Positions 5,883-42,239 of a DNA stretch of 64,000 nucleotides are shown in pieces. The notes under the pieces are model-generated. The model saw nothing but the letters and a program-made list of their open reading frames with translations. It did not search any database and was not told where the DNA came from. A program made the position numbers and the translations under genes. The DNA is taken from positions 62,001 through 126,000 of the forward strand of contig QUOL01000012.1 in NCBI GenBank assembly GCA_009761415.1. The letters run 5' to 3'. Numbering within the stretch: position 1 is the first letter of the stretch; each line of letters begins with the position of its first letter. Origin of the DNA: Sarcomyxa edulis (taxonomy: Eukaryota > Basidiomycota > Agaricomycetes > Agaricales > Mycenaceae).

Positions 5883-6084
5883 GTCGGTGCCGCCTTCGCG
5901 ATCTTATTCTAGCATCCACTCACTCTTATTTCAACTGATGCGTTTCGTTCTAACACCCTGTGTCCTCCGTCGCCTCCACCGCAAACGCAACCCAAGTACA
6001 ATTATCGACGTCCTTCCCTCTTGGTGTTGGGTTTAGGTCGACCACCCGCCGATTCCGCGTCAGGTGCTATGGAACCATATATCC

Positions 6085-6724
6085 CCGTGAGTCAGTGTGG
6101 TAGAATGCGCCAGCACCATGCTTTCTGCCTCCATTATGGGCGCAGACATTCCAATCGCATAGATTCTGAACGTGCCCATCTGAACGGGGCCTCGTGTCGT
6201 TGCATGTGACGAATCGTTGTGGTCGATGTGTCTCCTCCCGTATCGTCCCCACTCGCTAACTTCCGTTGAGATTGGTGGCCTGGTTCCGACGACGGCTGAT
6301 ACTGTGATACTTAACTTTATGTGAGTATCCTACTCAGGATCAGAATGTGGTATGCGTGGCGTACCTTGTGTTGTCTAGTCGGTCAGCGTATAATAGCATA
6401 ATGTCGTCTTCTGGGTCCCTGGACCCGTTCATGTCTCTTGAAAATATGGCGTCTCCGGGTTTGATTAGCAAGTGCCCTTGGAATTTTGTCAGCTAAATAC
6501 GGATTATAGGCAGTTGCGTCGCGCATACCTTCGCTGCCCTTTCTACTCTCCTCTTTCATTATTTCCGATGCATCGATTGCAGCACCTGTCTTTTCAATCA
6601 CATATGCATTACCTCGATTGAGCCACAACGGGTGAGGTACGTCTGATAGATATATGGTGGGTAGATGTGCACCACGATTGGCAATGATCACCTCGTTTCC
6701 TAGGGCGTATTGGTCTTGATTCAT
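6085..6724 (-). pseudogene. Decayed TET/JBP-type dioxygenase relic
   Basis: Exon 1 (6724-6529) carries LPTIYLSDVPHPLWLNRGNA, the counterpart of LPTLYLSKGVHPLWQGKGQA in the intact gene at 16.3 kb. After a GT-AG intron, exon 2 (6476-6365) gives LLIKPGDAIFSRDMNGS, matching LKPGEAIFSRDIAGSG there. Near 6265-6090 the minus strand reads RYGRRHIDHNDSS followed by TFRIYAIGM, matching NYGRPHIDDKDSP and RFHIFGLGI of the dioxygenase core and keeping the HxD iron ligands. The exons between these blocks are deleted and the frame shifts after the HxD block, so the gene is dead. It abuts the truncated kinesin head-on. Confidence 0.8.
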
Positions 6725-6826
6725 GGGCGAACGTTCTTGATCGAAGATCAGGGCAAAGTTGCCGATCGTACTTGGAAAAAAAAGAAGCAGCTGTTTGTGC
6801 GTGCTTGAATCTAAGGCTATGGGCAT

Positions 6827-9800
6827 ATGTCAGCTCATCCTCTGCTCATCCCTCCATCGATCTCTTTTGGATAACAATCTTCTGGTCTGCTCTCATATCA
6901 TGGGGCTTCCGTTGCATCGCCTGATCTCCATCTTCATTGTAATCTCTGGCTTGTGCGTACTCAGTGAATCTGGGTCGTATAGTCGTGGGCATCTTTGCTC
7001 TCATGTCGAACCCCCCGGGCCCTCTATCTTCCTTGGTGCGAATAACTTTGTCGATAGGTCACCCATGCTTGGGTCACTCACTCTTGTCTTACGTCTAGAT
7101 ATTAATCTGCCTATGGCGCCAATATCTGGATGTCATATTAGTACTGCATGGCATGCTTCGTATGGTGTGTCTCACGATTGTCGCTATATGTTGCTATCTA
7201 ATCCGGTACGATAGTTGACTTAGTAGTCGAGTTGTCGTCGCAATATGACGTGGATGAATCCTGCAAACCATATGGTGCGTTGTTATGTTGCGACCTTGCT
7301 GTTTATTATATGTCTGACTGTCTGTGCAGATGGTTGGATGTGTGTCCTTCCATCTAATCAAGAGACCTTTGGTGTCGCCCCACCCAGTCTCGAGGGATAT
7401 GCATCCTTTTTATTTGTGTACACTCCATGCGTGTACACTGCTATGCTTGAAAAAGCTAACTCGCTTGTCCAAGCTAAACCGCTCGAAAGAGCTAAACATC
7501 CTGCGGGGTGGTCGGTGTCTCTCTTGACTTCGGACCACGATGTGCTCTGTCGTTCCTTCTCGTTCCCTCTTCGTGTCGTCCTTACCCCCTCTGATTCTGC
7601 TATCTTACTTGGATTCTCTGAAGGTATTCTATCCAACTTTTTCTATCTAATTTATAGAGCTTCGAATAGAATACCTGAGGCCTTTGGATCGGATACTGGG
7701 CTCAGTAGACTCTGAGCCGGGTACAATCTTGGCTGATTTCGACCTAAAATATTTCAGATGCATCACAACAGGTGAGTCACATCTGTAGTCGTGTCCCGAT
7801 GCGTCGAAATACTGATTGGATTGAATTTCGACGCAACGCGATCACCGACAGACGCATAGCTGCACTGAAAACCAACCGCACAGTATATGTCTGGTCTTAT
7901 GTCAGCATATATGCACGTTATTCTCTTGTTTCCGATATTTCGAATGAACGCCTCCATATTCCCTGCCATTTCGATTTCCCAAATACTTTCTCGTCATCTC
8001 TCTTACTCTCAGAACTTCCTCATTGTGAGTCTATTTTTCTGCTCATGAATCTATGCTCGATGCTCGTTTCTGTTGGAAGGTGCAAACGCTAGCAACTGCC
8101 TGACGCGGACCTCTCTTATTGACTAGAATCCTCCGGTCTCTCGTATCGTTGCTCCCTCGGCCTACAAGTGAGCTACATTCCCAAAAGCTCCGTGCTCTTT
8201 CCTTCGATTAACTTTCCTTTGAGGATTTTCGTCTGTGTCTCGTCAGGTCTTTGCGCGCTGGTATGATTTCTCTGCTTATTGTTGAATGTGAACATGAATT
8301 TGTGATTGATGGTTTATTCTCTAGATCGATGTCCACTGTTACTCTATTTCTATCGTTCTCAGTATGTCTCGATTGTTTTCGATGCTAGTGGCCATATAGT
8401 CCGACTAACGATGCCACTGCTTGATATACAGCTTTCACAGTCTATTCAATGCACACTACTACGATCAGTGGGGAGCAGGAGGAAGAGGGGAAGTAGGAGG
8501 AGGAGTGACAGCAGCAGCAGTGGAGTAGGAGTAGGAGTAGGAGTACTAGTAGGAGGCGGGGAGAGGGAAGCACCTGGAGGAGCGGGAGCGGGGGAGCGAG
8601 AGCCAAGCGAGGGGGCAACTGGGAGGGCAGGGTGGCGGGCAGGAGGTATCGAGACCAGGCTGTAAATAATTGTAAAGCGATCCATTAATGCACCCGATTT
8701 ATCTGTAAATATCTGTTTTCTCGCACAATTATACACAGAAAACAGCAAAATTCACAGATGTTTCCGGATTCTGTAAATACTTGTTTCTGTCGGTCTATAA
8801 TTGTCCGGATTTTTCACTGGGAATAAGGGACAGCAGACTTGGAATCCAGTTGTATGACACGTTCGGAACGCGTTGTTGTGCCGGAGTGCCATAGTAGCCT
8901 TGCGTCTAGCATCAACGCGATCAATGCGATGGAGAGTTTTCCATTTTCCTCGAAGAGTCTGCTCTGTAATGTACAAAAGTGGAGCACTCATCTTCGAAGC
9001 TACCTGACTTGTCGGAGCGACGAGCTCGCAGCCTGAGGTACTTGGACCTGCAGTCCATCAGCAAGCTGTGGACACGATTCCGCTTCTGCGACAGCCGACT
9101 TGTAGTCTCAAGCCCAGTCACCTACACATACAGTTCTGCCAAAAGTGTCAGCTCCAAGCCTAAAATCTGCAAAATCCGGACAAAGGTTCTGAGATTTTGG
9201 CTCCAAATCTGCAAAGTCTGGACAGCAAAATTTCCAAATTTCGCCCTCAAATCTGCTAAAATCCAGACAATCCGGTAGGGGAGCTTCCGGGGGCCTCAGG
9301 AAGGTATGGGTACACCACTATCGTAATTCCGAGCATATAGTCCAAGGAGGGTATATTCAGAATCTACACAATTGGTGTCGGTATACAAACAGAGGAGATC
9401 GACAGCATCATGATGATTATGATGGGTTAGAGGATGAAGAGGATGAAGAAGAGGGGATTTGACTACGACTCCATAGGAATCTTGATACCTGTGGGAAATC
9501 CTTGTTTAGATGCTCGATTGGCTGTATAAGGACCGAACAAACAAATGAAGGAAGGAAAACACTCGAGGCTAGACAAAACATGAGGCAAATGAAGAGTAGA
9601 TTAGATACACACTGATACCCCATCGACATTGAGACGATCTACGATGGCACTGTCAGTACTGAAGAATTGTGCGGTTTCAATATTTTTGTGCATAGAGGTG
9701 TGTCGCCATCGCCATCTGGGATGGTGACATCGCTCCATGGGATTTGTGAATTATATGAGGCAATGGGATGCAGTCCTTCCTCAGTTAAGTATTACCATAT

Positions 9801-9985: not shown

Positions 9986-11213
9986 TAACACAAATTACAC
10001 AATCAACACACATGGCAGCAAGGAATTGCCAACAATCACTGCAGTACCCCAAAACTGTCTGTGTCCGGAAAGACCAGGAAAATTGATCAACCCTACATTC
10101 TTGTACTTTTTCCTAGCTCTGTCTCGAGCTCGACACTCAGGAACTTGGGGCTTTCCTTTCTCCAGGCATGTTCCAACCAGAATCAGAATCATCATCATGT
10201 CTGGCTCTAGGTAGATTAACAATCCACATTCAATCCCATACTCCGGGAATTTTCTCTTTTCTAGTTTTCAGCTCCGGAAATCTTGTCGGTCTCACCGATT
10301 TGTCTCCAGAAATCAAACGATGACTTAGAAGAAAAACACGAATCACAAAGTTTGCCCTTTCCTGCTCTTGACCACGACAGTGACGACACGCCGACCGGCC
10401 TTCGCCACCTTCGAGTTCGCGTCGATTCCCCCAACGAAACATAACAATCAAGTATATTCTTCGATGTGAAAACAGGTCTCTTACATTTATTCTACTGCGA
10501 CAACCGTGACTAGATCTACCAGTACCTGACGCGACTTACGCGTGTGTACAGGATATTCGACAGCACTCGTATCCAGACGACGACTAAGGATGGCCGAACA
10601 CAATGCAGAAATATGCACCCTCGATGATTCGATTCGTCTGCAAACTACTGTGACCCCAAGTCGGCGAGACTCGAAGGTGAGCTACGCACTGCGTTCGCGC
10701 CTTGTTTGATGACATAGTTGCAAGCAGCTCATACCGTTGTCGTCTAACTTGAAGTGCGCATAGTCACTGGTCAGTATCAGAGAACTTCTTCTTGGGTCGC
10801 ATATACCAGCATGCAAGAATGCAACGACAGGCGCCGCCAGGCAGTACACTCTCCCGTTCCCTGTATGTGCATATATCGCATCCTCAGATGTTGTCAGCAG
10901 GTATGTGCTTGCATGCCTTGCATTGACATAGGAAGCTGACACGGAGCTGTATTCAAACTACTTCTCGAAGGATGGTAAGCCAAATCCTGCAATAACGGAC
11001 CTACTAGTACAACGGCTGCATCTGGATACAGGAGAAGGTGAGCAATTGATGCTGTTTCCTAGATACGCTAGTGACATCGCTTCTAAACTAGGATGTCTCC
11101 GACTACACATGAGCTACCACTCGTTTTTGATCGTGGTCGCGTTAGTACTGTCCGTATTCAACAACACCTCTCGACTTACTTACAGTCGCAATCCTGTTGG
11201 AATAGAAGTTGAG
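9986..11213. other. Intergenic region with no recognisable gene
   Basis: Frames are short and broken. About 60 bp at 10022-10080 (caatcactgcagtacccca then aaactgt...ccggaaagacc) resemble 41120-41170. Around 10950-11200 there are peptides such as FSKDGKPNPAITDLL with intron-like boundaries that may be the eroded 5' part of whatever unit the repeat at 11214 belongs to. Confidence 0.4.
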
Positions 11214-11573
11214 GTGATGACCTGCATGCTATTGTGAGTCTCCGATCTGTATTTTGGTTTGATCATATACTCTTTTCTCCAGGTTAGCAGCCTGCGGTGG
11301 ACTCCAAAACGATACCAGTGACTCATGATCCAACAGCTAATGGTCTCGCAGGTCATTCTTTTCAAAGCTATCAGTGAGTGCATTTCTCTTGTCGGCTTTC
11401 ATCCTGTATCTCACGGGTTTATTATATATGTAGGTGTGAAGCGAATTTACATATTTGTCTCGTGTCGATATCAGTCTCAAGCCTTATTGCCTAGGTACAT
11501 AGAGGGATCCGGTTTGGCTATCTTATCCTATCCATCTATCATATAGCAGGTCCATCTTAGTTTATTTTATCGT
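11214..11573 (+). repeat. Dispersed repeat, copy A (about 360 bp)
   Basis: This segment recurs in reverse orientation at 41398-41757. Both contain gtgatgac[c/t]tgcatgctattgtg, a block coding for ACGG[L/I]QND-like residues, and the long shared tail from ctatctcacggrttta through gcctaggtacatagagggatccggt to tagtttattt. The two copies differ by substitutions and small indels. It may be the 3' end of a duplicated gene or the end of a mobile element. It abuts the truncated end of the transposase gene to its right. Confidence 0.85.
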
Positions 11574-13860
11574 TACTTCTAGGGGTAGGCGAATACGATT
11601 GGGTGCGAGCTACACGAGTGCGATGGCTGATGTGTTGGTTCTGGTAGGCATCAATCAGCTCTCCAAAAACGAAGAGATAGACAATCACCCACAGCAAGTC
11701 TGGACGATGTCGCACGAGCCATGCAAGTGTAGAACCAGAGAAAAGTCGAGTGGCGGCATTATCGTCCTGACGATCAAGTTTGCGGTTAACAGCTCGCATG
11801 TAGAGAGATCCGTCTTCTGCAAAGGCAATCATCTGAATGAAGCCATAGAGGGCAAGGTGATTCCCGAGTGTTTTGCTACTCGCCCCTGAGAATAAGTTGT
11901 TGCGAAATGTCTTCAGTCCATGCTTGGCATCTTGTACACATGCGATCGGATGGGAGGCGTCCTCGCCGTAGAACGAGACTTTGATAGGAATGTGGGGACT
12001 TCGTGGATTCTCGCCAGGATGCTTGATGTTGTAAGTCACGGTTCGAGTAGCGTTCGAAATGAACTGGTATTCGACAGAGCGTTCAACACCAGTTCCATCG
12101 CAAGCGTACACAACTACTTGAATGCCTTGTCGTAGAAGGCCGTCAACAATATATGTATGGTGCTCAAGCAGCTGATCGGCGTCTAGAGTGCTCGGAATTG
12201 CTAGTGCCTTGACTATGATTGCAGTGGCTTTGGGAAGAGGAATTTGAAGGCACCATAACCGCACCTGCAGGTATAGGCTTGAGACTCCGAATCAGGAAAT
12301 AATGAAGGTGAGATGACATACCTTATCCGCTTTCGATAATGCATGCTCACAGATCATTATCCGAAAGGCTTCTGGGTCAGCTAGAAGCAAAGGCTCCCCT
12401 GTATTACCAACGACGTAGAAGGTGTTTGTTTCGGCATCGTGATAAGGACAAAAGGCCACTAGGAGCTTTGTGTCATCACAGCTCAGTCCGACAGGGCCAT
12501 CATATTTCAAGCTGTCTAAACGATGTCGAACATACTCGAATGTTGTGTCGGTTCTACCGATGGGTAAATGAGGTGCCAGTGCTCGTTGACATCTGAGGAT
12601 AGGGAACATCAGTTGGCTGAGCAAGTTCTGGTACACGGAAAACTCACTGAATAATCCTCTGAGCGGGATCAGGTAGATGATCTTTGAGAAAATCGTATGC
12701 TCGTGGGCTGTGCATATTAATGATATGAGCGAACTCTAGCACTTCTGGAGTATACTTGAAGTTTTGCATCCCGACGCCTCCGTCCTCTTTGTCTGCTTTC
12801 ATAACGAAAGCATGAATTAAACCTGAGAAAACATCGTCACCCTTGAATTTTCCTGAAAGAACACCTTGAACATATCTGAGGCAAGGAATTTTTGGGTCCT
12901 GATAAAGCTGTTTAGTGTCAGGACCTTGATAGATAGAGAATCGGCTCACAGTCTCAGATTTCTCCATAATTTCTCGTAAACCCTTGCAGCTGTCGTATAT
13001 CTCAGCCAAAGTCCTGTTACGACATACCTTGTTAAAGTACTTATAGTTCTTGTCCTCAGGCTGTCGTATTGAAAGGCTTGTTCAGAAGACATTAAGTCTA
13101 AGTAATGCCATGCAGTTGTGGCAAGCTGACTCTGTATTCAGTGGTGATATCTTGCAGCAGGAAGTCGAATACACTCGTCGGTAATATGAATTATCACGCC
13201 AACGCCATCCGCGACTTTGGATGACTCGAACTTGCTCTTTCTGGGCTGAAGAAAGACTCGAAAAATTTGCGCCCAAATCGCGTTGAAGAGATATGGGTCA
13301 GAGAAGGACCCTCACCACCAAGTGCACCTGTACGATCGAGATAACGGGCAATACGCTTGTCTTCGTCAGCAGTAAGGCCAGGGCAAGGGTGCTCTTCACA
13401 TTCTTCAAGTTTTATCCGTTTTCGGGGACTATCACGATAAGATATCGAGTGCAACGACGTTGCTGTACTCACAGAAGCAGGGGAATTGGTCCATGATGTT
13501 TTCGCCATTTGGAAGAGGGTTGGCATTCCTCCTCGTGTTGTCTTTTTGCTCTTTTTCGATTTAGAGACACCCTTACATCTCTCGAGATGGTTTACGAAGT
13601 TACTGACATTGTATACTTGCTTCATGGCGAAGTATCTGCCACAGTGCGAGTGTCGTACTCTGGCGGGTTCGATTTCAGTGTGTTTGTCGAGGGAATGAAT
13701 TTTGGCTTTGAACGTAGCAAAACGATCCTTCTCAACTTTGAAGGTGCCATTTCTGAGTTTTTCTCTGTTTTGCTGATCCCAGACTGTCGTTCGAGGAAGT
13801 TCAGCTCCAGGCATACCAAACTTCTTGGAGTGTTCACAGACAGCTTCAGCAATTTCCGAG
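11557..13860 (-). pseudogene. RNase H-fold transposase with BED/C2H2-like finger (P-element/THAP9-like?)
   Basis: Minus-strand coding blocks run 13860-13194, 13030-12644, 12603-12322 and 12264-11557, the last three separated by clean GT-AG introns (for example KADK then VRLWCLQIPL). Block 1 has a zinc-finger-like segment, SHCGRYFAMKQ with NFVNHLERC downstream. Later blocks carry GLSCDDTKLLVAF, VVVYACDGTGVERS, DAKHGLKTFRNNLFSG and LDRQDDNAATRLFSGSTLAW, a spacing and motif order reminiscent of P-element/THAP9 transposases; that superfamily assignment is inference. The C-terminus stops where dispersed repeat A begins, so the 3' end is missing. The frame also changes near 13870, where only a 26-nt intron would restore it. 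It appears to be the downstream half of one polyprotein-like gene with the Ulp1 part at 14.3-15.8 kb. Confidence 0.7.
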
Positions 13861-15816
13861 GATAGGGCTTGTCTTCCTCAACATGCTGTTTACCACTTTT
13901 TGTCTTCTCCGACATCATCCCCTCGTTCTGCACCTGTACAGCACATCCCTTCCCTTCAAATATGCTCCATACTGGAGGGCTTGGTGGATCCAGGACACCT
14001 CTAGATGCTCCGGACATCAATAAACCCGCCTGGGGATCTGTGTTCGACCCATCAAGTTCATCATCTGCAATGTACAAATCGATATCGGGATCGAGCTCAG
14101 CCATCGCAGTATCCTCATCCTCATCAGTCCGCCATGCAGAGTCCTGTTGGCCGATTACCTGGCTGGACGAGGCTACCTGAGATGTGTCTATGATAGCAGA
14201 TTGGGAGACGGTATGTGTTTCAATCTCAGACTGTCTGGGGTTAAGAAGATGCGCTACTGAGGTTCGGGAGATGACTTGTGTAGGATTTATTAGACGCGCC
14301 AAAGAATTGGGAACACTTTGGCTATCACGGCGCTCTCCCGGTCTTCGATGATGTTCCCCCCCCCCTGCATTTTTGTCAGCATCATCGCGTCTAACAAACT
14401 AATAGAACTTACTCGGTAGTTGGTATGTGCTGCACACAATATATTAAACCACTCTGCGCGCTTGTACACCTTACGAGAAGAGGTCCAAAGAGGGACTCCT
14501 AGCACGTTGTGTGCGAGTGTATTCGATGCGATGATACCACAAGAAATGCCATCATCTGCTGGCTGAATCCCGTGCTCCAGGGAGTTGCCATTATTCACGA
14601 ACGGGCCGTCAGACCTTTTGTCTAGCCACCACTATAAGTTTCGAATGATCTCTATAGGTTCTGGCATTCCCGCATGGGAAAGAGAATCACCTGGTAAAAG
14701 TTTTACTTATGAGAGACTGCAGCTTGGAACAATTAGAATTTCTCGTTACCGTAAGCAAATTCCTTTGCCTCAAAGTTTATCGAGAAGACCAGCCAATGCA
14801 GTTGCTTCTCTAGATGAACTGGAAAGTAGAATGTGGGATTATTGTGGCGAAGTCGCTCTTCGAGTTTGCGCATATATTTGGTACGTGGTACATCAAAGTC
14901 GGCGGAGCTTTTAGCTTGCATGATGTCGTTCAGAAATGCTAATGTGGCAATTTCTACTGTAGATCGAAGTTCTTCGTCTAGCTGAACCTGCTCCGAGATG
15001 TATGCGACCATCATATCCACCAGTGTTCCTGTTATTATCCCATCGGAAAGTAATGGTGCAAAATGCAATGTCGTCGTGTAAGTAGCTGCTCCGTGAATTT
15101 TGATAGACTGGTTCCAACTGAGGGATGCAAGCCAATTTTCAGGCTTCTTTATCGCAGACAGAGTCGCGGTCAGCTGCTGGTGTGCTCTAAGCCAAGCCAT
15201 ACTCTTTTTCCACCTCGATGCGGCATCGATGACCTCGTAGGCTTCTCGCCAGAACGTGCACCCACAGCGGAAGACACGACTCTTTATACTTGGGGTCCAC
15301 GACTGAATTCACACCATCCAACACAGCTTGACCGAACACTTTTCTCGTGTGCTCTACGAAGTTCTGACTCGGAAGCATGCATGTGCATAGACGTTCTATG
15401 TCTTCGTTTGGTGGCTGGGGGCTGAATGATTTTTTTATGCTCGGATACACTAGGTCATAGCTCTCCTTTGGCATCTGGAACCGTAAAAACGCATCGATCG
15501 TTATATCCTCGCTGGGAAGTAACTAGTTCCGGAACTGGTCTGGCATCTCGAGAGTCGGGGTACAGTAGTGCTCGAGTTCGGGGACCCTCGACGCGTCAGG
15601 TGGGTATGTTTTATTTGTTCCAATCCATTCGTCTACAGAGAACGGTGGTAGCTCTGAGTCGGATAATAATATCTCGATGTCATGATCTTCATCCTGCATG
15701 ACAGGAAGAAGCTTGATCTGAGCGAGAGATGTGATGATGGACGCTTCTGTGAGGTAAATTGACAGCGAGTGAGGATTTTTCACCAGTGCATACACAAACA
15801 GCCTGGATTTGGACAA
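13861..15816 (-). pseudogene. Ulp1-type SUMO/cysteine peptidase region of a DNA transposon
   Basis: From the right, the frame gives LLSDSELPPFSVDEWIG, PPNEDIERLCTCMLP, WLRAHQQLTATLSAIKKPEN and then the peptidase core: HWLVFSINFEAKEFAYG|DSL (catalytic His and Asp, split by an intron ending near 14690) and HGIQPADDGISCGIIASN (Gln and Cys). This is the His-Asp-Gln-Cys order of the Ulp1/C48 family. A Ser/Asp-rich linker follows (14302-13870). Damage: an in-frame TAG at 15523-15525, an apparent one-base frameshift near 15260, and a TAG at 14633-14635 in the sequence NL*WWLDKR. Ulp1 peptidases are frequent partners of transposases in Agaricomycete DNA transposons. The gene is head-to-head with the TET/JBP gene that starts about 500 bp away. 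Confidence 0.78.
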
Positions 15817-15894
15817 TTTCTATACAGGTAGTATCGGAGAACATGCTGACTTTCAAAACACCTGATGGCGCCACCCAGCAAGCTGTCCCAGACC

Positions 15895-16060
15895 TGGCGT
15901 TTTTATCTGGACATGCCTTAGGCCTACTGGCAGCCCCTCATGCCTTATCCGGACACGAACCTCAGGCATTTGGCCACCAGACCCCTGTTTTTATCTGGAT
16001 TGCATCAGGCCTCTGCTGTTTGGAGGTCTGTTTTTATCCGGATGCATCTCCGGCCTCACA
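15895..16060 (+). repeat. Short imperfect direct repeats upstream of the TET/JBP gene
   Basis: Three copies of tttttatc[t/c]gga, each followed by an atgc/ttgc and an aggcc-type word, occur near 15900, 15990 and 16032. They resemble subterminal repeats of a DNA transposon but no terminal inverted repeat was found. Confidence 0.55.
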
Positions 16061-16095
16061 TAGCAATGTCAGAGGTCCTGTGATGGGTGATCGAT

Positions 16096-16261
16096 TGATC
16101 GTCCTTGTCCTCATCGGGTATTAATTATAGCAACACGATCGAGGCACAATCGACTCGGAAAAACTTTGTCCGGCTCCTCTGGGTGATTGTCCTTGTCCTC
16201 ATCGGGTATTAATTTTAGCAACACGATCGAGGTATATGGCCACAATCAACTCGGAAAACTT
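16096..16261 (+). repeat. Tandem duplication (period about 86 bp) in the TET/JBP upstream region
   Basis: cttgtcctcatcgggtatta followed by att(a/t)tagcaacacgatcgag occurs at about 16101 and again at about 16187. The second copy carries an extra tatatggc before caatc[a/g]actcggaaaa. It lies 70-235 bp upstream of the predicted ATG, so it could duplicate promoter elements. Confidence 0.85.
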
Positions 16262-16330
16262 TTCACAAATTCCCCAAAATCATCTACTCTGTCAAGGTTT
16301 GACTGCGCTGACACGTATCCATCGTACACT

Positions 16331-19300
16331 ATGGCAACGAAATCCAAGCCATCCTCGACACCGAAACCAACGGCCTTTTTGGGTAAAGCCATCAACTTAC
16401 CGAACAGACCGAAGGAGCTCCCGACACTGTACCTATCGAAAGGCGTTCACCCTCTATGGCAGGGAAAAGGTCAAGCGTATGTATATCTTCAAGACCTCCG
16501 GCCAGAAGCGATGGCCAAGGCGCTGAAGTATGAGAAGGAACAGAAGATCCCCATAGGCACGAACGACTATGTCAGAGATGTACTTGGTACGTTCATTTTT
16601 CCATCTCGTTACTCGAAGAGTGCTTACTTTGGGACGATTTACATCTACACAAGGTATATTCACACTAAAACCAGGCGAAGCAATCTTCAGCAGGGACATT
16701 GCAGGGTCAGGAAAACCAGAGGATGATGTGATCAAATGCTGGGTGACTGGAAAGTGAGTAGCGTACCGTAATTGGTGACTTTCACAGTGATTAATAGTCA
16801 ATCAGATCTTCCTTCAGCAATGAACAACTCGACGCCCTGACTAAAGCCAGGGACGCGTGTCTAGGTCCCAAGGCCAAACGAACGTCGGGACGACCAACCA
16901 AAAGCGCGAAAGGCGTCTATTCCGGAGGGCTAGAATTTGAGCGAGGGGACGAAGCCAACCAGGCGAAAGATCGTGTGTTTGCCATTGGGGAATCGTTCGA
17001 GCTGCAGTCCAAGAAGATGGCACCAACGGCTCCGGGAAAAGTCCATGGAGGTTGGTCCAAGGTGAATCAGATGAGGAAAGATTTGCTGAAGGTACGTCTG
17101 TCTCGTTCTCGCGATTCCGTACTAACAAGCGTTAAATTTGTGCAGGCCGTTGCTAACATAGCAAAGACCGCCTTCACTCACGCTCCAAAACACGTCCAAA
17201 ACGCTATATCTGACAACGCCAGCTTGCTCAACACCCCAGACCTCGGCGTAGACGGAAATTACGCATATGGGGCTGCCCAACTCAACATTGCGCCAGCGCA
17301 AGAGGATACACCAGGTGCGTTTCCACATACTCTCGTCCGTTCCAAGGTGCTTATGTGGATTTGCAGCCGCGTCTCTCGAAGGATCTATGGGCAATTACGG
17401 TCGACCACACATTGACGATAAGGACTCTCCGGGCCATTACACCAACATGACGGTTCACTCCGATATACCAGCAGGATACAATCCAGGAAGGTTCCACATC
17501 TTCGGTCTAGGTATCTGTATCAACCTAGATAACTTCACATCTATAAACTTCTCGGGACTACACTACCACGGAGGTTCGCCACCCACTGCTCCGCCGGGCG
17601 AGAAGCCAGTCCATTGGGCGTACCGATTCGTTTTAATCTTGTATCCTCCGCTCAATATGACAGACGGTTCGGCACGTCTGGTACTAGCAGCCTTGCCAAA
17701 GAACCGAGAATTTCATCTCCTCCCGGAGATGACAAACCTTTCGTGAGTTCGAACATATTTTCATAGCAGCGATCGAACTGATGTGGTCTCAGATGCGAAG
17801 ACAGGACAAAAACACCCTGGTGCGCTCACGCAACGTTCGCATCGGACGCCACCGTAACGATGGATCAAGTTTCGCAAGTACGATTCTTTGCTCGTGCACT
17901 CCTCAATGCAAACTTGTACTTTCTGTTGCAACTTCCACCCGATTTCCAAGTCCAGTTGGACCGAGACAAGTTTTTACAATCCATCTCCACACTAGCAGAC
18001 AATAAGCGCATTACGACAGGAGATTGGGCACTTGGTCCGGGGTTCGCACCACTCGACCACAACCCTTCTACAATGCCTACCACGGTTACGATCGATAACG
18101 TGGCTCAGGACACAAAGCGAGCAGATGCAATCACCAGGTGGAACACATACTTCACCAACACAGCCATTCACATCCCTTACGCTGTCGTGAACAAGAAGAC
18201 CAATGCAATCACCTTCAACGCCGACATTCCAGACGCGGTGGAAGGTAGCGATAAGACAGCAAATTCAAAGGGTAAAAAGAAGACCATTTCCACTGAATCG
18301 AAATGTTCTACATGCAGAAAACCTAAACGCAAGAATACGAAGTCCGTCAACATGACAGGGCCAAGACCAAAACAAAATATCCGTACGTACAGTTCATCGT
18401 TCTAGTTATTCGATTCAAAACTAACAAAGCATGACCAGCAAATCGGCCATCTGCGAAATCCAAAACAAAGAAGAAGGCAGCCTTGGCGAAAAATAACTCG
18501 CAAGATATTAGTGTCACAAAACAGGCGAAGAGAAAGAGACAAAACGATGCCGACGAAGGTACGTTATACATTTCCGTGTCATGGATAACTGTTCTGACTC
18601 TCAACACCAGACAGCGACTATACGGATATTGAAACGGACGATGAACATCTTGAAGAGGTTGCGACTGCATATACAGGTACGTCCGGAATACTATATATTC
18701 TAGGTTCTGGAAAATAACATTAGTACAACAGCGAAGCGTCCAAGATACACAGCTAATGCCGACCATGACAATGATCCTCCTCCCACACGCGCTTCGAGAT
18801 CGCCAACCAACGACGGACCGTCTCTGCAAACTCGCGACAAGAGGACAGAGAGATTGGAAGGCAGATTGTCGAGACGCACTGAAGAGGTTGCGACTGCATA
18901 TACAGGTACGTCCGGAATACTATATATTCTAGGTTCTGGAAAATAACATTAGTACAACAGCGAAGCGTCCAAGATACACAGCTAATGCCGACCATGACAA
19001 TGATCCTCCTCCCACACGCGCTTCGAGATCGCCAACCAACGACGGACCGTCTCTGCAAACTCGCGACAAGAGGACAGAGAGATTGGAAGGCAGATTGTCG
19101 AGACGCACTGAAGAGGTTGCGACTGCATATACAGGTACGTCCGGAATACTATATATTCTAGGTTCTGGAAAATAACATTAGTACAACAGCGAAGCGTCCA
19201 AGATACACAGCTAATGCCGACCATGACAATGATCCTCCTCCCACACGCGCTTCGAGATCGCCAACCAACGACGGACCGTCTCTGCAAACTCGTGACAAGA

Positions 19301-21308
19301 GGACAGAGAGATTGGAAGGCAGATTGTCGGGACGCGCTGAAGAGAGTATACCAGATGCAGCTTTCCCGTCGACATCCAAAGGTCCGTGCATGACACTAAG
19401 ACCGTGTCAGCCACATATATAAGTATGTACTAAGGACGTCTCGATCTAGCTATACCTTTCATTGAAAACGTGACTACTGCAAGCATATCCGCTGAACTTC
19501 TTGCTGTACAACAACAGTTCGAAAATTCCAGAAACACATACCTACACCATTCTAGATGCAACGACGTCGAATATCCTCCCCTCAGCCATCTCCTGCCGTC
19601 GTTACAACAACCCTTTTCCAGTATTCAGTCCACATGCATTGCGACTGCATGGAAACATATATCCCGAATCAATACACAACTCAATGACCTTGCGCTGTGC
19701 ATAAGAATAGGCCGATTCGACATCATGTCAGCGACAGCATCTATGTGGACATGGTTGAACGTCAAGTGCGCGGACGTTATCCACAATATCTTATCCGATT
19801 TATCCGTCGAGGATTCATGGGTGGCGCGATTGGTCTATCGCATTCAAGTATTCGTATGCAACGGCATTAGGGACTGGGAGATATCACCCTCGGACATTGG
19901 CCTGGAAGTTCCAGCGACGACATATAAATTCCATGCAGCCTACCCTGTGATCGAGACGGAGAGACAATCTAGACTGATAGAAAAGCAAAGCATCTCGGTA
20001 ATCCGTCAATGGCTAGGATATCCCATCACACGTTCATCGAATCATCAAGGACACTTTGTATGCACTGTCATCCAAGAGTGGTCGGTATCAGCTTTATATC
20101 TAGACTCTACTTGGGACGCGTTCAAGAAGATTATCGCCAGAGTCATAGGTCATCCATCTTCCGGTTCTGACAACACCCTCGTATTCCGACCACTTGTATC
20201 TGCAATGCGAAAGCATCCTTTGGCATCGATCGAATCTTACGAACATGTTATGGCATCCGAGATACAACAGCTTATCAGCAAGTTCAGCGACACCGATTTC
20301 TCCGGTACACCCAAGGAATATCCAATGCCGATGGATGTGGACACTACCACCAGCGCCAGCACTAGACCGGATGCAGTACCTAGACAATCTGACGACAACC
20401 CAGTTAGCCCACATGAGCCCGAACTACAACGCCTTCTGCTGTATATCGATGAACTGTATCCCCTTATCACCACTCCAGACAAAATCACCCCCATATCCAA
20501 CCCAACCAAACTACAAGAAGCTGTCTACAAAAATGCCGATAAACTCTTACCATTTCGCGAACGTGCACCATCGAGAGAAATCATGCTCGGGGACATATCA
20601 CCATTCTCACCGTCACTGGTCCGTACGAGGAAAGGTCTTTTCAGTGCAGCAGTATGGCGCGGCATCACGTATAATGCACCTTTTTCACATGAAACATCAC
20701 CGGTATTCGATGATCTTGTCGACTGGAACAATCGCCTGATATCCAAAGCAACTAGACCTGCGGAACTGGACATATCAGAACGATCATACTTTTGTGATAT
20801 GTCAGCATACGGCCACTTGAACGCAGGTCGAAAAGTCCAGCTAGCAGAGCAATACTGGGCGGACTCGGAAAGCGCAGAATGGACATCGATGTTGGCTGCC
20901 GACTCAATATCTTTCATGGACTGTTACCGGTTCTTCACCGGCTCGGGCACCCCTCGCTTCTTGCATATAGGTCCCTTGGCAGGTTATCTGATAACAGCAG
21001 ATTACGTATATGCAGGCCTAGTGGAGAAACCAAGTGTCGAAGAGATGGGAGAGATTATATGGAAGCTTAACAAGGGAGGCGTTAAAGGTTTGAGTAAACT
21101 TGGTTTTTATGTGCCTGCTGAAGCAGAACAGGGTGTCCGTCGAGAAGGTAAAGAAGAGTGCAAGCAGGCATTTGAGTGCATATATTCATATCTATCGATT
21201 CATCTCTCGAAGGAGAAGCAGTTGCGAATGGGATTCGATGTCATCATGGTAGAACATTTATTGTGCAAGTATCACAGAGCAGTGTCACGGAAACTTTTCA
21301 AAGGCTAA
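16331..21308 (+). CDS. TET/JBP-family 2-oxoglutarate/Fe(II) dioxygenase, large fungal type
   Basis: Twelve exons (16331-16586, 16654-16753, 16806-17091, 17146-17314, 17367-17742, 17793-18382, 18439-18558, 18611-18676, 18732-18905, 18961-19134, 19190-19381, 19450-21308) splice at GT-AG sites to 4362 nt, an uninterrupted 1453-aa protein. The dioxygenase core is in exon 5: NYGRPHIDDKDSPGHYTN gives the HxD iron ligands (His285, Asp287), FSGLHYHGGSPPTAPPG supplies the distal His (336 or 338), and YRFVLILYPP the 2-oxoglutarate Arg (357). Family members oxidise 5-methylcytosine or thymine in DNA; Agaricomycetes have expanded, transposon-linked sets. After the core come a Lys-rich segment with a CSTC pair (about 555-640), a repeated Arg/Lys-rich region and a 620-residue C-terminal region of unknown fold. 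All residues expected for catalysis are present. Being intact among relics suggests it is either young or under selection. Confidence 0.88.
18652..19338 (+). repeat. Three tandem copies of a 229-bp exon+intron unit inside the TET/JBP gene
   Basis: Units start at 18652, 18881 and 19110. Copies 1 and 2 are identical and copy 3 differs at three positions near its end. Each contains a complete 55-bp intron (gtacgtccgg...acaacag) and 174 nt of exon, so each copy adds exactly 58 residues (AKRPRYTANADHDNDPPPTR and onwards, ending LSRRTEEVATAYT). All the introns are phase 1, so the unit is symmetric and can be multiplied without breaking the frame. Confidence 0.97.
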
Positions 21309-21579
21309 AATTATACAATATATACAGTTTATCCACTCATCAGCGTCTAGACTGAATAGTACAAACCATCTGACTGGAATATAAACATTGATAGTCACAC
21401 GAGCCTGTAAATTGCTATTAGTATGATCACTATGACTGGCATATGGCGAAGACTCGTTAGAGTTGGAGTTCGAATTGGGATTAGAATTAGGCTTGGACCG
21501 ATGTCCAACAGGCTCCGAGAACCATCTATCATAAGAATGCTGAAGATGTCCCAGGCAAGCATTTGATTTCGATTTCGAT
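21309..21579. other. 3' flank of the TET/JBP gene
   Basis: AT-rich sequence with no frame of note. It probably contains the 3' untranslated regions of two convergent genes. Confidence 0.4.
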
Positions 21580-23339
21580 TTTCGTGACAGGGACGAATCA
21601 TTTTACGCAAATGGCGTTTCAGGGATAGCGCTCAAGGACGAAGACGCAGACATAGACGTAGATCCCAGACTCGGTACAGTATGACCCTGCACGAGAGACG
21701 TGGCATGGCTACGCAACGCATCAATGGGCTTAGGAAGTCCTCGGGTTCCTCGGCGAGAATCGTAGCATCTGTGACGAAGAGGAAGAGTTGGAGAAGAATG
21801 AACCAGATAGAGAAGATTGGCAGCTCAACGAAGAGGTACCAGTAGTAGTACTACTATGCGAGCGTGTATCGAGGCATTTGAATTGCGATGTCAAGTCTGA
21901 CATGGTATTTGAATTAGAAGCCGCCGAATTTCGGGGTGTGGAGTACTGGCATGAGATGCAGTACTGTTTTGACGGCAAGGAGACGAGTAATGACCCGGCA
22001 TACGGACGATGTTTGTTGTAGAAGTTTTTTGCAACACTCTTTTGTGGGTGAAAGATGACTCTTCGTCAGCAGGTGGTGGCAGTGGTGGTGGAATGTCTTC
22101 CTGAGTTCGATAGCTCTGACCATTTCCATTCGAAGCAGATGAGTGCGATTGTGCTCCACCCTGAGTAATGCCAGTACCAGTACCAGGTACCAGAAGTCTG
22201 AGTTTGTTCTCGAGAATTAGCTGCTGGCGGCGGTGGCGGACGACATGAATTTCCATTCAAAGACCCAGACCCAGACCCAATGTAATTAGTAGTACGAGGA
22301 GCCCGAGTGGATTCAATAACGAATTTGCCATACTAGTCCTCGACCAGACTTGTGAGCTCAACGGTCTAGGTCTATCAAGCGGTCAATTCGGATCAGTGGG
22401 AAGAAGAGGGTACGGGGTTGTCAGCTTTGGCTGTAGAACAGACGCAGATGCAGAGGGTCGTCCCAGAGAAGAAGGCTCAGATGAATGCCTGGACGGATTA
22501 TGTTTATGATTTCGACCATCTGAGGAAGGTATAGGATCGGATGATTGTCGATCTACATTAACGTGAAGCCGACGTGAGTACGAAGACGAATTAGAAGAAG
22601 GTTTACAGCTCATCCCTGCCTGATCCTCCTCTTCTTCTGGTGCCAAGTATGGTTTCCTAGACGGAATAAGCCCCCTGGGTTCATGAACCCTTTTTCTATT
22701 CGCATCCTCATATTCAGCATGTTCCGCACCGTCCCTCCATTTCTCTCGATATAATTCATATAAGTATGTTCTGGAGAGGAAAAGGCAAGGAAGGTTGAAT
22801 TGACAGTCATGGACCATAGTCAACATGAATATAAGAGAAGGGAAGCCGGGACAGACATACCTAGGAATCGTATCCGACAGCCCAAGAGGATTATCTGAGA
22901 GTCTCATAGCCATATACTCAGCACTTGGGCATTTCAGAACACGTTTATAAGGGTTATTCTGGCTTTGAGCCTGTCCCTGTACCTGTGCTTGACCTTGCTG
23001 AGTCTGCTGAGGCTGTTTATTATGATGCTGAGACTGGGGCTGCGTCCTGGACCAAGAATACCACACATTCCCCGGAACCCATGGCGCCTGCTGACTTCCA
23101 GGAGGCGGTCTCGCCTGAAGATGATTATGCGCAGCACAGAATTGAATTGTCAAACACCCTCCTTGGCGAATATTTCTTAGTCGCGATGGACGGTTGTCGA
23201 AACATTCGAGTATCAGTATGGATGCATGGTGGATGATGGATGATGGATCGAGATCATGGCGAGAGAAAAAAGCGTTGTTTGGCAACGCCCACCTCTTCCA
23301 GGCCGTTGGCAAACAACTGGCATGGCAGTGCCAATGCAA
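21580..23339 (-). CDS. Low-complexity Ser/Pro/Gln-rich hypothetical protein (model incomplete)
   Basis: The longest block (23339-22383) reads FCAAHNHLQARPPPGSQQAP, a Gln-rich run (QPQQTQQGQAQVQGQAQSQ), NPYKRVLKCPSAEYMAMRLS and, after a likely intron near 22860-22765, TYLYELYREKWRDGAEHAEY and a Ser-rich tail. Further minus-strand blocks at 22260-21891 and 21978-21730 are Pro- and Ser-rich (RPPPPPAANS, SSLSGSFFSNSSSSSQ) but in different frames that I could not join. No known domain is recognised. The middle part looks like real coding sequence; the ends may be eroded. It converges on the TET/JBP gene. Confidence 0.4.
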
Positions 23340-39282: not shown

Positions 39283-41397
39283 CTCAGTCGTTGTGTGGAC
39301 AACGTCTGAGGTGTATCGGGTTGGTATCGGGAAAATACACTTCTTATAGTTATACTGAAAGATATCGGAAAGAGATCCGTAAAATCCCAGGTAAATTTAC
39401 CTGGGTCCCGAAGTCTGTTACAAAGAATATTCTACAATAAAGGTATAGTAGAGGTACAGGATTTGTGGCAAAGGGGAGGAATGGAGAGGATCAGTGTATA
39501 CTCATACTGCATATGGATATCGCGGCCTTGCCGGCCGGGCGTCTGTCGGCGTCTGTTGCGTGATGGGACTGACGCAGCTTGGGATTCCAACATCTTATTA
39601 GCCTTGGGAACGCTCGCCGTCCATACGTCCTCAATATATTCTTCATACAATATGGCGACCACCTTGCAAGAGCATACATGGTGATCCAAGATCCGGCAAT
39701 TATTCTCCGATATTCCGATCCTCCGCAAGGGCAAAGGCCGCAAAGCTGACTTTCCCGAATTTGCTGATGTCGCAGACGATCGCTGCCAGTGTTGCTTCTT
39801 CGGTTGGACATTGGATATTATATTGGTGCCGGTGGAGACGTAGAGACTTAGAGATGACTATCAGGATGAACACTGCATAGGTTCGAGTGTTAGAGACTGA
39901 ACCAAACTTCGAAGACTGTCAGTGTCATGTAAGTACTTGCTTACACGGTTGCTGTTTGACGTATCAGCGTTAGGGCAAGGTTGGGGCAAGGTATATAATC
40001 TTTTTTTCCTGAGGACTTTTGAGAGTATAATTGCGATCGCCAGTCAGATAGTGGTTAAATAAAGAGAACAGAGGAATCGGAATTGCCATCCGAGCTAAAT
40101 TTCGATACGCGTGACTGACACGTCGCGTTCAAGTCGCGTCGACTTGCAATCAAGTTCAGCATCGGCATTACTTACGCGAGGGGGAACTCTGAATACATGC
40201 ATATCTATGAGAGACTGATACAATACCGTTCAGATGTAGACAACTACAACTCTGGTACCTTTTCCGTCAATCGGTGGAATAACAGTTTGACACGCTGACC
40301 CAACGCTGACCCTATGAGCGCACGGCTAGCCCTTTCCTCCTGCATGTCCCATACAGGCGTTCCAAAACTTATTGAAGCCCAGTCTAGCGCTCCATTTACT
40401 GCGACCCTCTTGACCAGACGTTGTCCGTCAAAGTACCGACTCGAGATTTCTGTTCAGCTCTCGATTGAAGATCCTCCAGACGATCTGTATCCCGACGAAG
40501 TCAAATATTACGAGATACGAGTTTAGTATTAAAAGTACGTAGCCTGCGACCCTCTCGTCTAAGCTACATAGCACACTTGACCCTCGGGATAGTTGACCAG
40601 GGTTGTGAGTAGTCTCTGGCAGAGACAAAGGATAAACAGTATCACTTGCAAGCCAGTCGCGCGCCCTTCCGCCTCCAAATTTGGCTACACAGGAACATAC
40701 AGACAATTTATGTAGTCAATGACTCAATCTGAATACAGATACATTCTCCAGCCATATTGCCTGAGAGCATGTTACTCGGAGACGAGCAGGACACAGTCTC
40801 TCGCAAGGAAAAAAACCTGTTCACTAATTCCGCACCCATGCACAGTATATAGGCAAGGAGCTCCAAGACATGTAGTTGATCTCATCGATCGAGAAACACA
40901 ATTCAGAGCTTGAAACTCGGAGAGCATGAGCGCAGGAAGTGACAGTGGCGGTGCTCTTTTATGTTTATTTGGGCACCAATTGCATCCAAGAGAGAATTTC
41001 CTGCCCCTGGCTAAGACCAATTTGGCCGGACCCCAATCAATTTGCATTGGCCAGATCAAACTTGGCCAACATGGTTTGGTAAGGTCGTGGCTAAGTTAGC
41101 CATGGTGATCGAGTTCGAGCAAGCACCAATCACTGCGGTCCCCCAAAACTGTCCGAGTCTGGAAAGGCCTGAGGAAAGTTGATGTGCGTGGACAATCCCG
41201 ATCACTGGACAGGAGGAGGATCCAAATCCATGCAGGCTTCGGAATGCGTCCCGCATTCGTACTTTGCCCGGAGTGCGGATTCTCTTCTATCCAGGACTGT
41301 CAGAGTGCCGGGCAGTCACCTTTTCAGGTCCAGGCAGGTATGTAAAGACAGCAATCCAGTCGAGGCAGGCATCAAGGCAGGTACAACCAATATTATT
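39283..41397. other. About 2.1 kb without a supported gene
   Basis: It contains a perfect 20-bp palindrome (39386-39405), overlapping short frames around 39430-39810 that may be the eroded 5' part or flank of the MULE element, and transposon-end-like words (ccccaaaactgtccg...ggaaaggcctg) at 41125-41175. The latter resemble 10022-10080. Confidence 0.4.
39386..39405. repeat. Perfect 20-bp palindrome
   Basis: cccaggtaaatttacctggg reads the same on both strands. It lies about 100 bp from the start of the MULE coding region. Confidence 0.95.
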
Positions 41398-41757
41398 TAA
41401 ATAAACTAAAATAGACCTGCTATACGATAGATGGATAGGATGGATAGAACAGCCGTACCGGATCCCTCTATGTACCTAGGCAATAAGGCTTAAGACTGAT
41501 ATCGACACGAGACAGATATGTGAGATCGTGGAATTCGCTTCGCGTCTACATATATGATAAATCCGTGAGATAGAGGATGAAAGCCAACAAGAGAAGTCTA
41601 CTCACTGACAGTTTGTACAAACAATGACCTGCTAGAAACTGTTGAATCATAATTCGCTCGTATCGTTTTGGATTCCGCCGCAGGCTGTCAACGTAGATAA
41701 ATGAGTATCTAGAAGGAAATATAAATCGAAGACTCACAATAGCATGCAAGTCATCAC
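41398..41757 (-). repeat. Dispersed repeat, copy B (inverted relative to copy A)
   Basis: On the minus strand this matches 11214-11573 almost end to end, including gtgatgacttgcatgctatt, aatccaaaacgatac, ctatctcacgg, gcctaggtacatagagggat and the tagtttatt tail. Flanks outside the two copies do not match, which fixes the repeat ends to within a few bases. Confidence 0.85.
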
Positions 41758-42239
41758 CCTAAAACATACCTTTCACCCTCGAGCGGCTGTCAGCCCAACC
41801 GCCCCTGGGTGTCTTCCTTTCGCAAGGTTTATGTTCGAGATGTCGCTTGGGTCTGTCCTTCTTCTACGACTTGGATGAACATGAGAAAAGGACTTGGGAA
41901 AAAGCAGAAAGCTAGAGATTAGGAGGACGCACTTGAGTGAACATTTTCGAGGCAACGATGCAGAGTACTTGAAGTTGTCGTGGACGGTTGCGAAACACAG
42001 TGATGTGGATGACCGCATCTCACAGCGAGAAGTATTGTATGTACTGCCTGGCGGCGGCAACGTGACAAAATCGTTCTGACATCACTCACCCCCCACAGCT
42101 GCAGACTAGATGGAATCTCCTGGATGAATATGAAGACTGCTGGCCAGTCCGCGACATGCTGAAATTGCAACTGGAGTAATTATGTGTTCGAGTCAGCTCG
42201 GACATCAAAGGACAAGGATGTAGGCAAACGTGTGAGACA
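41758..42239. other. Unassigned sequence downstream of the chitin synthase relic
   Basis: Chitin synthase similarity has ended. Minus-strand frames here (for example [17 protein letters not shown]) do not match the rest of the catalytic domain, so the gene appears to be joined to unrelated DNA near 42240-42310. Confidence 0.45.

What the first reader, a model, noticed from the sequence alone, without database searches (positions are those of the whole stretch)
11557..21308. Head-to-head unit: Ulp1-peptidase/transposase gene and an intact TET/JBP DNA dioxygenase gene
The sequence shows a minus-strand gene with a Ulp1 His-Asp-Gln-Cys core followed by a zinc finger and an RNase H-fold transposase. 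It starts about 500 bp from a plus-strand TET/JBP gene that is open over 12 exons (1453 codons) with HxD, distal His and Arg present. TET/JBP genes are known to be expanded and transposon-linked in Agaricomycetes, mainly with KDZ-type transposases. The transposase here lacks the KDZ motifs I know and looks more P-element/THAP9-like. If the pair moves together, it would be a different class of transposon carrying its own DNA-modification enzyme, perhaps to escape cytosine-methylation silencing. The transposase half is decayed while the dioxygenase is intact, which could mean it has been kept by the host.
Basis: partly seen in the sequence, partly recalled or inferred. Interest (0 to 1): 0.88.

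Follow-up and report, generated by a model that had tools for sequence, protein, structure and literature searches.

The report
Two unrelated mobile-element pieces, not one
A decayed P-type jumping gene happens to lie next to a DNA-dioxygenase-like gene in a mushroom-type fungus; they are not one mobile unit, because the dioxygenase-like gene belongs to a family that normally rides inside a different, rolling-circle kind of jumping gene.

Summary
The outer terminal inverted repeat of the Ulp1/transposase element ends at window 16079, between the genes; the dioxygenase-like gene starts at 16331, outside it. Two full-length copies (C14, C4) have termini of this kind and matching 8-bp target duplications, and no dioxygenase gene; 1 of 4 transposase loci found has one beside it (the window).

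The dioxygenase-like family (13 loci found) is mostly cargo of large Helitron2-type rolling-circle elements: 10 of 13 loci have a matching Rep-helicase within 3 kb, and 10 of 12 such Rep-helicases have the dioxygenase. Element ends lie on both sides of it in four copies (20.7 to 31.4 kb). A dioxygenase-free sibling is inserted in a P-like copy whose uninterrupted twin is on C14. TET-carrying Helitron2 was published in 2025 (PMC12730594). The window gene looks like a stranded, open copy. Its TET/JBP identity is only weakly supported by sequence (no Pfam or PDB match). Host retention is untested.

The parts
11611..15819 (-). Decayed Ulp1 protease - zinc finger - P-type transposase gene; C-terminus missing
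   Evidence: PF12017 above cut-off in 12647-13081; homologous piece by piece to the C14 copy; in-frame stop in the Ulp1 part
16060..16079 (-). Outer terminal inverted repeat of the P-like element (AGGACCTCTGACATTGCTAT), its boundary on the dioxygenase side
   Evidence: Exact match in the genome scan; same kind of terminus in complete copies on C40, C14 and C4 with 8-bp target duplications
15900..16079 (-). Terminal 180 bp shared at 85% with the end of a short complete copy on C40
16080..16087 (.). Candidate target-site duplication (GTGATGGG); its partner is lost with the other end
   Evidence: position only; no second copy next to a terminus in the window
16331..21308 (+). Open 12-exon gene for a TET/JBP-like 2OG-Fe(II) dioxygenase
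   Evidence: gene model; family members; HxD, His and Arg shared
17367..17742 (+). Catalytic exon with HxD...H...R
18651..19344 (+). Three copies of a 229-bp unit (about 99% alike) inside the dioxygenase-like gene
10084..11610 (.). Another dispersed repeat that abuts the truncated end of the transposase (72-75% to a C39 stretch that also matches window 41130-42058)
21397..23096 (.). Dispersed repeat starting about 90 bp after the dioxygenase stop codon (84-88% to C17:113925 onward)
6080..7520 (.). Relic of a Helitron2-type element: the region between dioxygenase and Rep-helicase of the C22 element and about the first 200 bp of the Rep frame, 77.6% identical, inverted relative to the window gene

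Best explanation
Two different mobile elements lie side by side by accident of insertion. (1) 11611-16079 is the 5' end and most of a P-superfamily-like cut-and-paste transposon whose gene joins a Ulp1-type protease, a zinc finger and a P-type transposase; it has terminal inverted repeats beginning AGGACC and makes 8-bp target duplications. Its terminus at 16079 excludes the neighbour. Its far end is missing beyond about 11610, where another repeat begins, and the gene is dead. (2) 16331-21308 is an open TET/JBP-like dioxygenase gene from a family that mostly travels as cargo of large Helitron2-type rolling-circle elements, next to their Rep-helicase gene. The window copy has no Rep-helicase and no recognisable Helitron ends nearby: a stranded copy. 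Shown here: termini, target duplications, the lack of a second pairing among the loci found, the linkage of the family to Rep-helicases, element ends on both sides of four copies, one natural empty/filled Helitron site. Inferred: that the window gene descends from such cargo, and that the enzyme protects its carrier from methylation-based silencing.
For: P-like terminus at 16079; complete copies with target duplications ATTGATGG, CCTCCAGA (C40), TTCGTAAC (C14), GGAACGAG (C4); no dioxygenase match in the C14 and C4 copies; transposase relatives at 4 loci, 1 with the gene beside it. Dioxygenase C-terminal exon at 13 loci (catalytic exon at 12 places); Rep-helicase of 51% identity or more at 12 genes (13 rows, two of them counted as one interrupted gene); 10 of 13 and 10 of 12 paired within 3 kb. 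Left ends and right ends lie on both sides of the gene on C1, C22, C38 and C34. Exact 3' end shared by the C34, C10 and C13 copies with three different flanks. The dioxygenase-free C4 element sits in a P-like copy whose uninterrupted twin is on C14. The window gene groups with C1, C38 and C22.
Against: The adjacency would be rare if the elements were spread evenly (4 transposase and 13 dioxygenase loci in 35.6 Mb), though repeats lie on both sides here. No Helitron end was found in the window, so the origin of the window gene as cargo rests on its relatives. Counts of the genome search are lower bounds. The P placement of the transposase rests on one Pfam match in 1 of 7 sequences scanned and a motif string; structure prediction failed. 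Of the four elements with both ends, only the C22 one was read throughout.
Confidence: 0.9

Rival explanations
1. The pair is one P-type transposon that captured a dioxygenase gene and moves both.
For: Head-to-head layout with about 510 bp between the open frames; both halves have mobile relatives.
Against: Terminus with known family sequence between the genes; no second pairing among 4 transposase loci; two full-length copies without the gene.
Confidence: 0.03
2. The dioxygenase-like gene has been freed from its Helitron and is kept by the host (domesticated).
For: Open over 12 exons and 1462 codons with no Rep-helicase match and no Helitron end in the window; its identity to the C34 outgroup equals that of the element-borne copies (0.315 against 0.316, 0.313 and 0.309), and it is no lower to C11, C1:2.39 Mb and C17.
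Against: To the database relative P0004 the window gene is less alike than the three element-borne copies are (0.244 against 0.272, 0.274 and 0.287). Element-borne copies show similar constraint, so it may predate the stranding; a recent loss of the rest of the element would look the same; no expression or population data.
Confidence: 0.15
3. The plus-strand protein is a 2OG-Fe(II) dioxygenase that is not of the TET/JBP family.
For: No Pfam or PDB sequence match to TET; the profile match to Tet_JBP-type proteins is weak (probability 7% and 4%) and was reached by 2 of 200 column-shuffled decoys; structure model too poor.
Against: HxDxxD and a Thr or Ser at His+11 in the window gene, five database relatives and two paralogues; by residue count these are the positions that in characterised Tet enzymes contact the 5mC base (passages of PMC11040006). 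PMC12730594 reports that its divergent TETs from Agaricus transposons were likewise recognised through structure-based comparison.
Confidence: 0.3

Closest known systems
TET+ Helitron2 of Agaricus bisporus (Kojima 2025, PMC12730594)
   Same: Helitron2-type element carrying a divergent TET/JBP-like dioxygenase in an agaric
   Different: That paper places the TETs of A. bisporus transposons in its PE type, whose hallmark is HxE; the family here has HxD, and has no Asp at His+11, the position named for the AG type (Kyakuja, Zisupton). No sequences of that paper were available for a direct comparison.
P superfamily (Drosophila P element, THAP9)
   Same: P-type HTH match, D..D..D(2)H..E string with a long stretch before the E, 8-bp target duplications (P duplication length recalled)
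   Different: N-terminal Ulp1-like protease domain and zinc finger; fungal host
KDZ (Kyakuja-Dileera-Zisupton) transposons with TET/JBP
   Same: Fungal transposons linked to TET/JBP genes
   Different: The transposase here gives no KDZ match; KDZ-type CxC2 domains exist elsewhere in this genome, none found in the window

Membership tests
P superfamily | P-type HTH (PF12017) | tested here: met
   28.3 bits, cut-off 23, in the window copy; only 1 of 7 related sequences scanned matches, and the genome scan finds only the window site
P superfamily | Catalytic D, D, then [C/D](2)H, then E (string as given in passages of PMC8230255) | tested here: met
   P0006 and P0007: spacings 109/50/178 and 100/51/178. 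P0008: D, D and D(2)H found, the text pattern for E not. Window: D, D and DAKH present; E lost with the truncated end
P superfamily | Terminal inverted repeats and 8-bp target duplication | tested here: met
   4 of 4 copies with both ends found: C40 twice, C14 (right terminus doubled by a 13-bp repeat), C4; 8-bp duplications are also made by other superfamilies (recalled)
P superfamily | RNase H fold with GTP-binding insertion | tested here: inconclusive
   AlphaFold model mean pLDDT 44.9; no meaningful PDB match by sequence profile or fold
KDZ | KDZ transposase domains | tested here: not met
   No KDZ family among the Pfam matches of the window pieces or of the intact relatives
Helitron2 (carrier of the dioxygenase-like family) | Rep plus helicase | tested here: met
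   PF14214 E 8.5e-35 and PF20209 (first half, L039), PF05970 E 2.2e-25 (second half, L043 on C4)
Helitron2 (carrier of the dioxygenase-like family) | Asymmetric terminal inverted repeats and terminal hairpins (as given in PMC5148889), no target duplication | tested here: met
   Left TTACGAGTCC with hairpin at the end; right GGACTCGTA about 40 nt from the end; empty/filled comparison without duplication, one T ambiguous. Right-end hairpins seen by eye only. Insertion site GGGT/ATAT, not the TT or TTTT sites quoted there
Helitron2 (window gene as member) | Element ends and Rep-helicase around the window gene | tested here: not met
   Ends no more frequent than chance, no Rep-helicase match in the window; only a relic at 6080-7520 in the other orientation
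TET/JBP | Match to the Tet_JBP family or a solved TET | tested here: not met
   the genome scan with PF12851 finds 7 other places, all under its cut-off, none of these 13 loci
TET/JBP | HxD, distal His, Arg and the base-contacting position at His+5 | tested here: met
   residue roles from passages of PMC11040006, positions by residue count
TET/JBP | Double-stranded beta-helix core of TET type | tested here: inconclusive
   model mean pLDDT 42.5, PDB search uninformative; hhalign E 0.005 and 0.009 at probability 7% and 4%, 2 of 200 decoys as good; a third profile did not align the region
TET/JBP | Oxidation of methylpyrimidine in DNA | not testable with these tools
   needs an assay

The most novel reading that the evidence does not exclude
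A lineage of large Helitron2-type elements has made a TET-like dioxygenase of a type outside the published PU/AG/PE scheme (HxDxxD with Thr/Ser at His+11) almost a fixed part of its gene set (10 of 12 Rep-helicases here), as its own anti-silencing enzyme; and the window copy, freed of its element, is being kept by the host.
Probability: 0.2. Interest if true: 0.65.

Novelty: new variant of a known kind. Interest (0 to 1): 0.42.

Why it matters
It removes a tempting but wrong unit and puts two better-founded things in its place. First, a P-like element with a built-in Ulp1 protease in agarics, with defined termini, two nearly identical full-length copies and short copies with intact ends. Second, a Helitron2 lineage in which a TET-like gene is present beside 10 of 12 Rep-helicases in one genome and absent from a complete sibling: a natural comparison for asking whether the enzyme lowers methylation on its carrier.

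Tried and rejected
One-unit hypothesis: rejected by the terminus at 16079 and by copies without the gene. KDZ transposase: no KDZ match in the window pieces; CxC2 domains are elsewhere. Window gene inside a Helitron: ends and Rep-helicase sought in the window and not found (repeated with shorter patterns, where 1 and 11 matches with up to 3 mismatches are no more than the shuffles give); sequence downstream of the gene shows no similarity to the C1, C22, C38 or C34 stretches. Structure route: both AlphaFold models were too poor to use and their PDB searches gave nothing interpretable. PDB sequence searches: no TET, no P transposase, and no hit for a Tet_JBP-type protein of this genome either, so that search is insensitive here. 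Host retention from codon positions and relative rates: not decisive. The terminus scan with up to 3 mismatches equals its control (10+8 against 9+9); only the 6 exact sites and one with 1 mismatch are above what 3-mismatch noise explains. Not counted among the 13 dioxygenase loci: a fragment of its N-terminal part at C4:282506 without the C-terminal exon.

Literature: TET with Helitron is in print. For a P element with Ulp1 in fungi, searches listed no paper on it, judged by title and start of abstract; the library lacks most subscription journals, so this is no proof of absence. Iyer et al. 2014 on KDZ and TET/JBP is recalled, not read.
Full report
What is there. The window is C4:62001-126000 of a 35.6-Mb genome in 40 contigs. 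The database relatives found for the two proteins come from Hypsizygus, Arthromyces, Marasmius, Mycena and Favolaschia, so the host is most likely an agaric; it is not named here. On the minus strand, ORF pieces between 15819 and 11560 match piece by piece a longer gene on C14 with a Ulp1-like part, a zinc finger, an HTH and a transposase core. PF12017 scores above its cut-off in 12647-13081. The gene is dead in the window: the Ulp1 H..D..Q..C order is interrupted by an in-frame stop, and homology to C14 ends at about 11610, where another repeat begins. On the plus strand a 12-exon model from 16331 to 21308 is open for 1462 codons.

The two genes are not one element. The sequence AGGACCTCTGACATTGCTAT, read on the minus strand at 16060-16079, is the outer terminus of the P-like element. 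On C40 two short complete copies (871 and 863 bp, 98.7% alike) have the same kind of terminus at both ends and perfect 8-bp duplications, ATTGATGG and CCTCCAGA; the window end matches the one tested at 85% over 180 bp. The full-length C14 copy starts at C14:498149, ends near C14:506139 (its right terminus is doubled by a 13-bp repeat) and is flanked by TTCGTAAC on both sides; the C4 copy (from C4:642995 to C4:662593) is flanked by GGAACGAG on both sides. The C14 and C4 copies are 99.4 to 99.8% identical in their five main blocks, so the family was copied recently; each carries insertions of its own. No piece of the dioxygenase gene matches the stretches read of the C14, C4 and C27 transposase loci, and the genome searches place no dioxygenase locus on C14 or C27, and only the window's on C4 apart from a fragment at C4:282506. 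Transposase relatives occur at 4 loci (window, C14, C4:657-659 kb, C27); 1 of the 4, the window, has the dioxygenase-like gene beside it.

The transposase. Three database relatives of 1506 to 1823 residues align with the Ulp1-to-transposase query; Peptidase_C48 is above cut-off in two of the three. In two of them the order D, D, D(2)H, E has spacings 109/50/178 and 100/51/178; in the third the first three are present and the pattern for the E was not found. PMC8230255 (passages) gives the P string as D230, D303, the [C/D](2)H motif at D339, and E531. This and the 8-bp duplications fit the P superfamily. The fit is not proven: PF12017 is found in 1 of 7 sequences and at one site in the genome, and the structure model is poor.

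The dioxygenase-like family and its usual carrier. The C-terminal exon finds 13 loci in 17 rows, the catalytic exon 12 (the C13 locus is cut by the contig start). Around the C38, C1 and C22 copies a long open frame carries Helitron_like_N and DUF6570 (scanned on C38), and the second half of the related C4 gene carries PIF1 helicase. A search with the C38 Rep half finds 13 rows of 51% identity or more, counted as 12 genes because C1:4076664 continues the C1:4066837 match after a gap; the other rows are at 38% or less. Laid side by side, 10 of the 13 dioxygenase loci have such a gene within 3 kb of the matched stretches (C38, C22, C1:4.06 Mb, C11, C13, C10, C34, C1:2.39 Mb, C17:11 kb, C21); two run into contig ends and cannot be judged (C2, C17:322 kb); one, the window, has none. 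Conversely 10 of the 12 Rep genes have the dioxygenase; C4:648 kb and C1:3.86 Mb do not. The three closest relatives of the window gene are head-to-head with the Rep gene; the other seven lie upstream of it on the same strand.

Element ends. The left end is TTACGAGTCCTTA with a hairpin: 7 sites in the genome and none in the control. The right end GGACTCGTATTGCCGTGCTTGCAGCGGC has 7 sites, none in the control. Such ends lie on both sides of the dioxygenase and the Rep gene on C22 (46929-67616, 20.7 kb), C1 (4054743 to about 4081832, 27 kb) and C38 (307313 to about 338747, 31.4 kb). In the second subfamily three copies, on C34, C10 and C13, share an exact right end of a related sequence followed by three different flanks, and C34 has a similar left end, giving 679812 to about 704052. 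The C22 element was read from end to end; on C1, C38 and C34 parts between the ends were not fetched, so that the two ends belong together there is inferred. One sibling, C4:646391 to about 655679 (9.3 kb), has no dioxygenase and is inserted in the C4 copy of the P-like gene; C14 keeps the uninterrupted site. The inverted repeat at the very left end, its mirror about 40 nt inside the right end, and hairpins are what PMC5148889 (abstract and passages) describes for Helitron2. An endonuclease domain, which would make it a Helentron in the strict sense, was not sought.

The window gene. It groups with C22, C38 and C1 with support 1.0, as their sister (0.92). Nothing in the window matches the Rep-helicase halves searched or the element ends beyond chance. 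A relic of the C22 element lies at 6080-7520, in the opposite orientation, so it is not simply the missing half. The gene is boxed in by the P-like terminus at 16079 and a dispersed repeat from 21397. I read it as a stranded cargo gene. Its identity to four of five outgroups is no lower than that of the element-borne copies, but to P0004 it is lower, so relaxed constraint is neither shown nor excluded.

Is it TET/JBP? Pfam finds nothing, even at E 10, and the PDB search finds no TET. PF12851 finds 7 other places in this genome, all below its curated cut-off (one of 14 control genomes, E. coli, rings as well), none of the 13 loci. Four of those 7 were fetched; two of the four are 99% identical. 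Against them the profile of five relatives gives hhalign E 0.005 at probability 7%, another profile E 0.18 in a different region, and a domain-level profile E 0.009 at probability 4%, with 2 of 200 column-shuffled decoys scoring as high. The two better alignments put HxDxxD on HxDxxD. PMC11040006 (passages) names the residue five after the first His (Gly331 in CcTet, Asn1387, Asp234 and Asp350 in the others) as contacting or freeing the base, and Asp337, Thr1393 or Ser238 at the next position; by residue count these are here Asp in all eight sequences that cover it, and Thr or Ser. So: a 2OG-Fe(II) dioxygenase very probably; a divergent TET/JBP probably.

Known or new. PMC12730594 (abstract, sections 3.2, 3.4, 4.2, figure legends and passages read) reports TET genes in 11 transposon lineages, Helitron2 of Agaricus bisporus among them; 'P element' and 'P superfamily' do not occur in its text. 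It describes PE-type TETs, with HxE, from A. bisporus transposons, and the AG type as limited to Kyakuja and Zisupton. The family here has HxD without the AG Asp, so it may be a further type, but no sequence of that paper was at hand. The carrier is therefore a known kind, the enzyme type and near-constant linkage a possible variant. The role as an anti-silencing enzyme is that paper's suggestion and is untested here.

Noticed in passing
C22:58284-59029 (locus L041); window 6147-6829: Between the dioxygenase and the Rep gene of the C22 element lies a second, shortened dioxygenase-like reading (N-terminal motif plus an HxD stretch, E about 5e-4); a relic of it is in the window.
   Followed up: partly
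about C38:328588 and C1:4064396: A near-perfect palindrome (TGACGTAGATAGGGC...GCCCTATCTACGTCA) just upstream of the dioxygenase gene in two elements, weaker in C22, not found in the window.
   Followed up: partly
window 18651-19344: Recent triplication of a 229-bp unit in the dioxygenase gene that adds repeat exons.
   Followed up: partly
C13:269380, C37:10315: Helitron2 right ends with no Rep-helicase match nearby, possible non-autonomous copies.
   Followed up: no
C39:650592-652350: A weak Tet_JBP match (E 0.01) about 1.2 kb from a KDZ-type CxC2 domain: a likely conventional KDZ-TET pair in the same genome.
   Followed up: no
about C14:501720-503125 and C4:659513 onward: An inserted element starting CATCAGCAAACCAG, about 1.4 kb with inverted ends on C14, interrupts both full-length P-like copies.
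   Followed up: no
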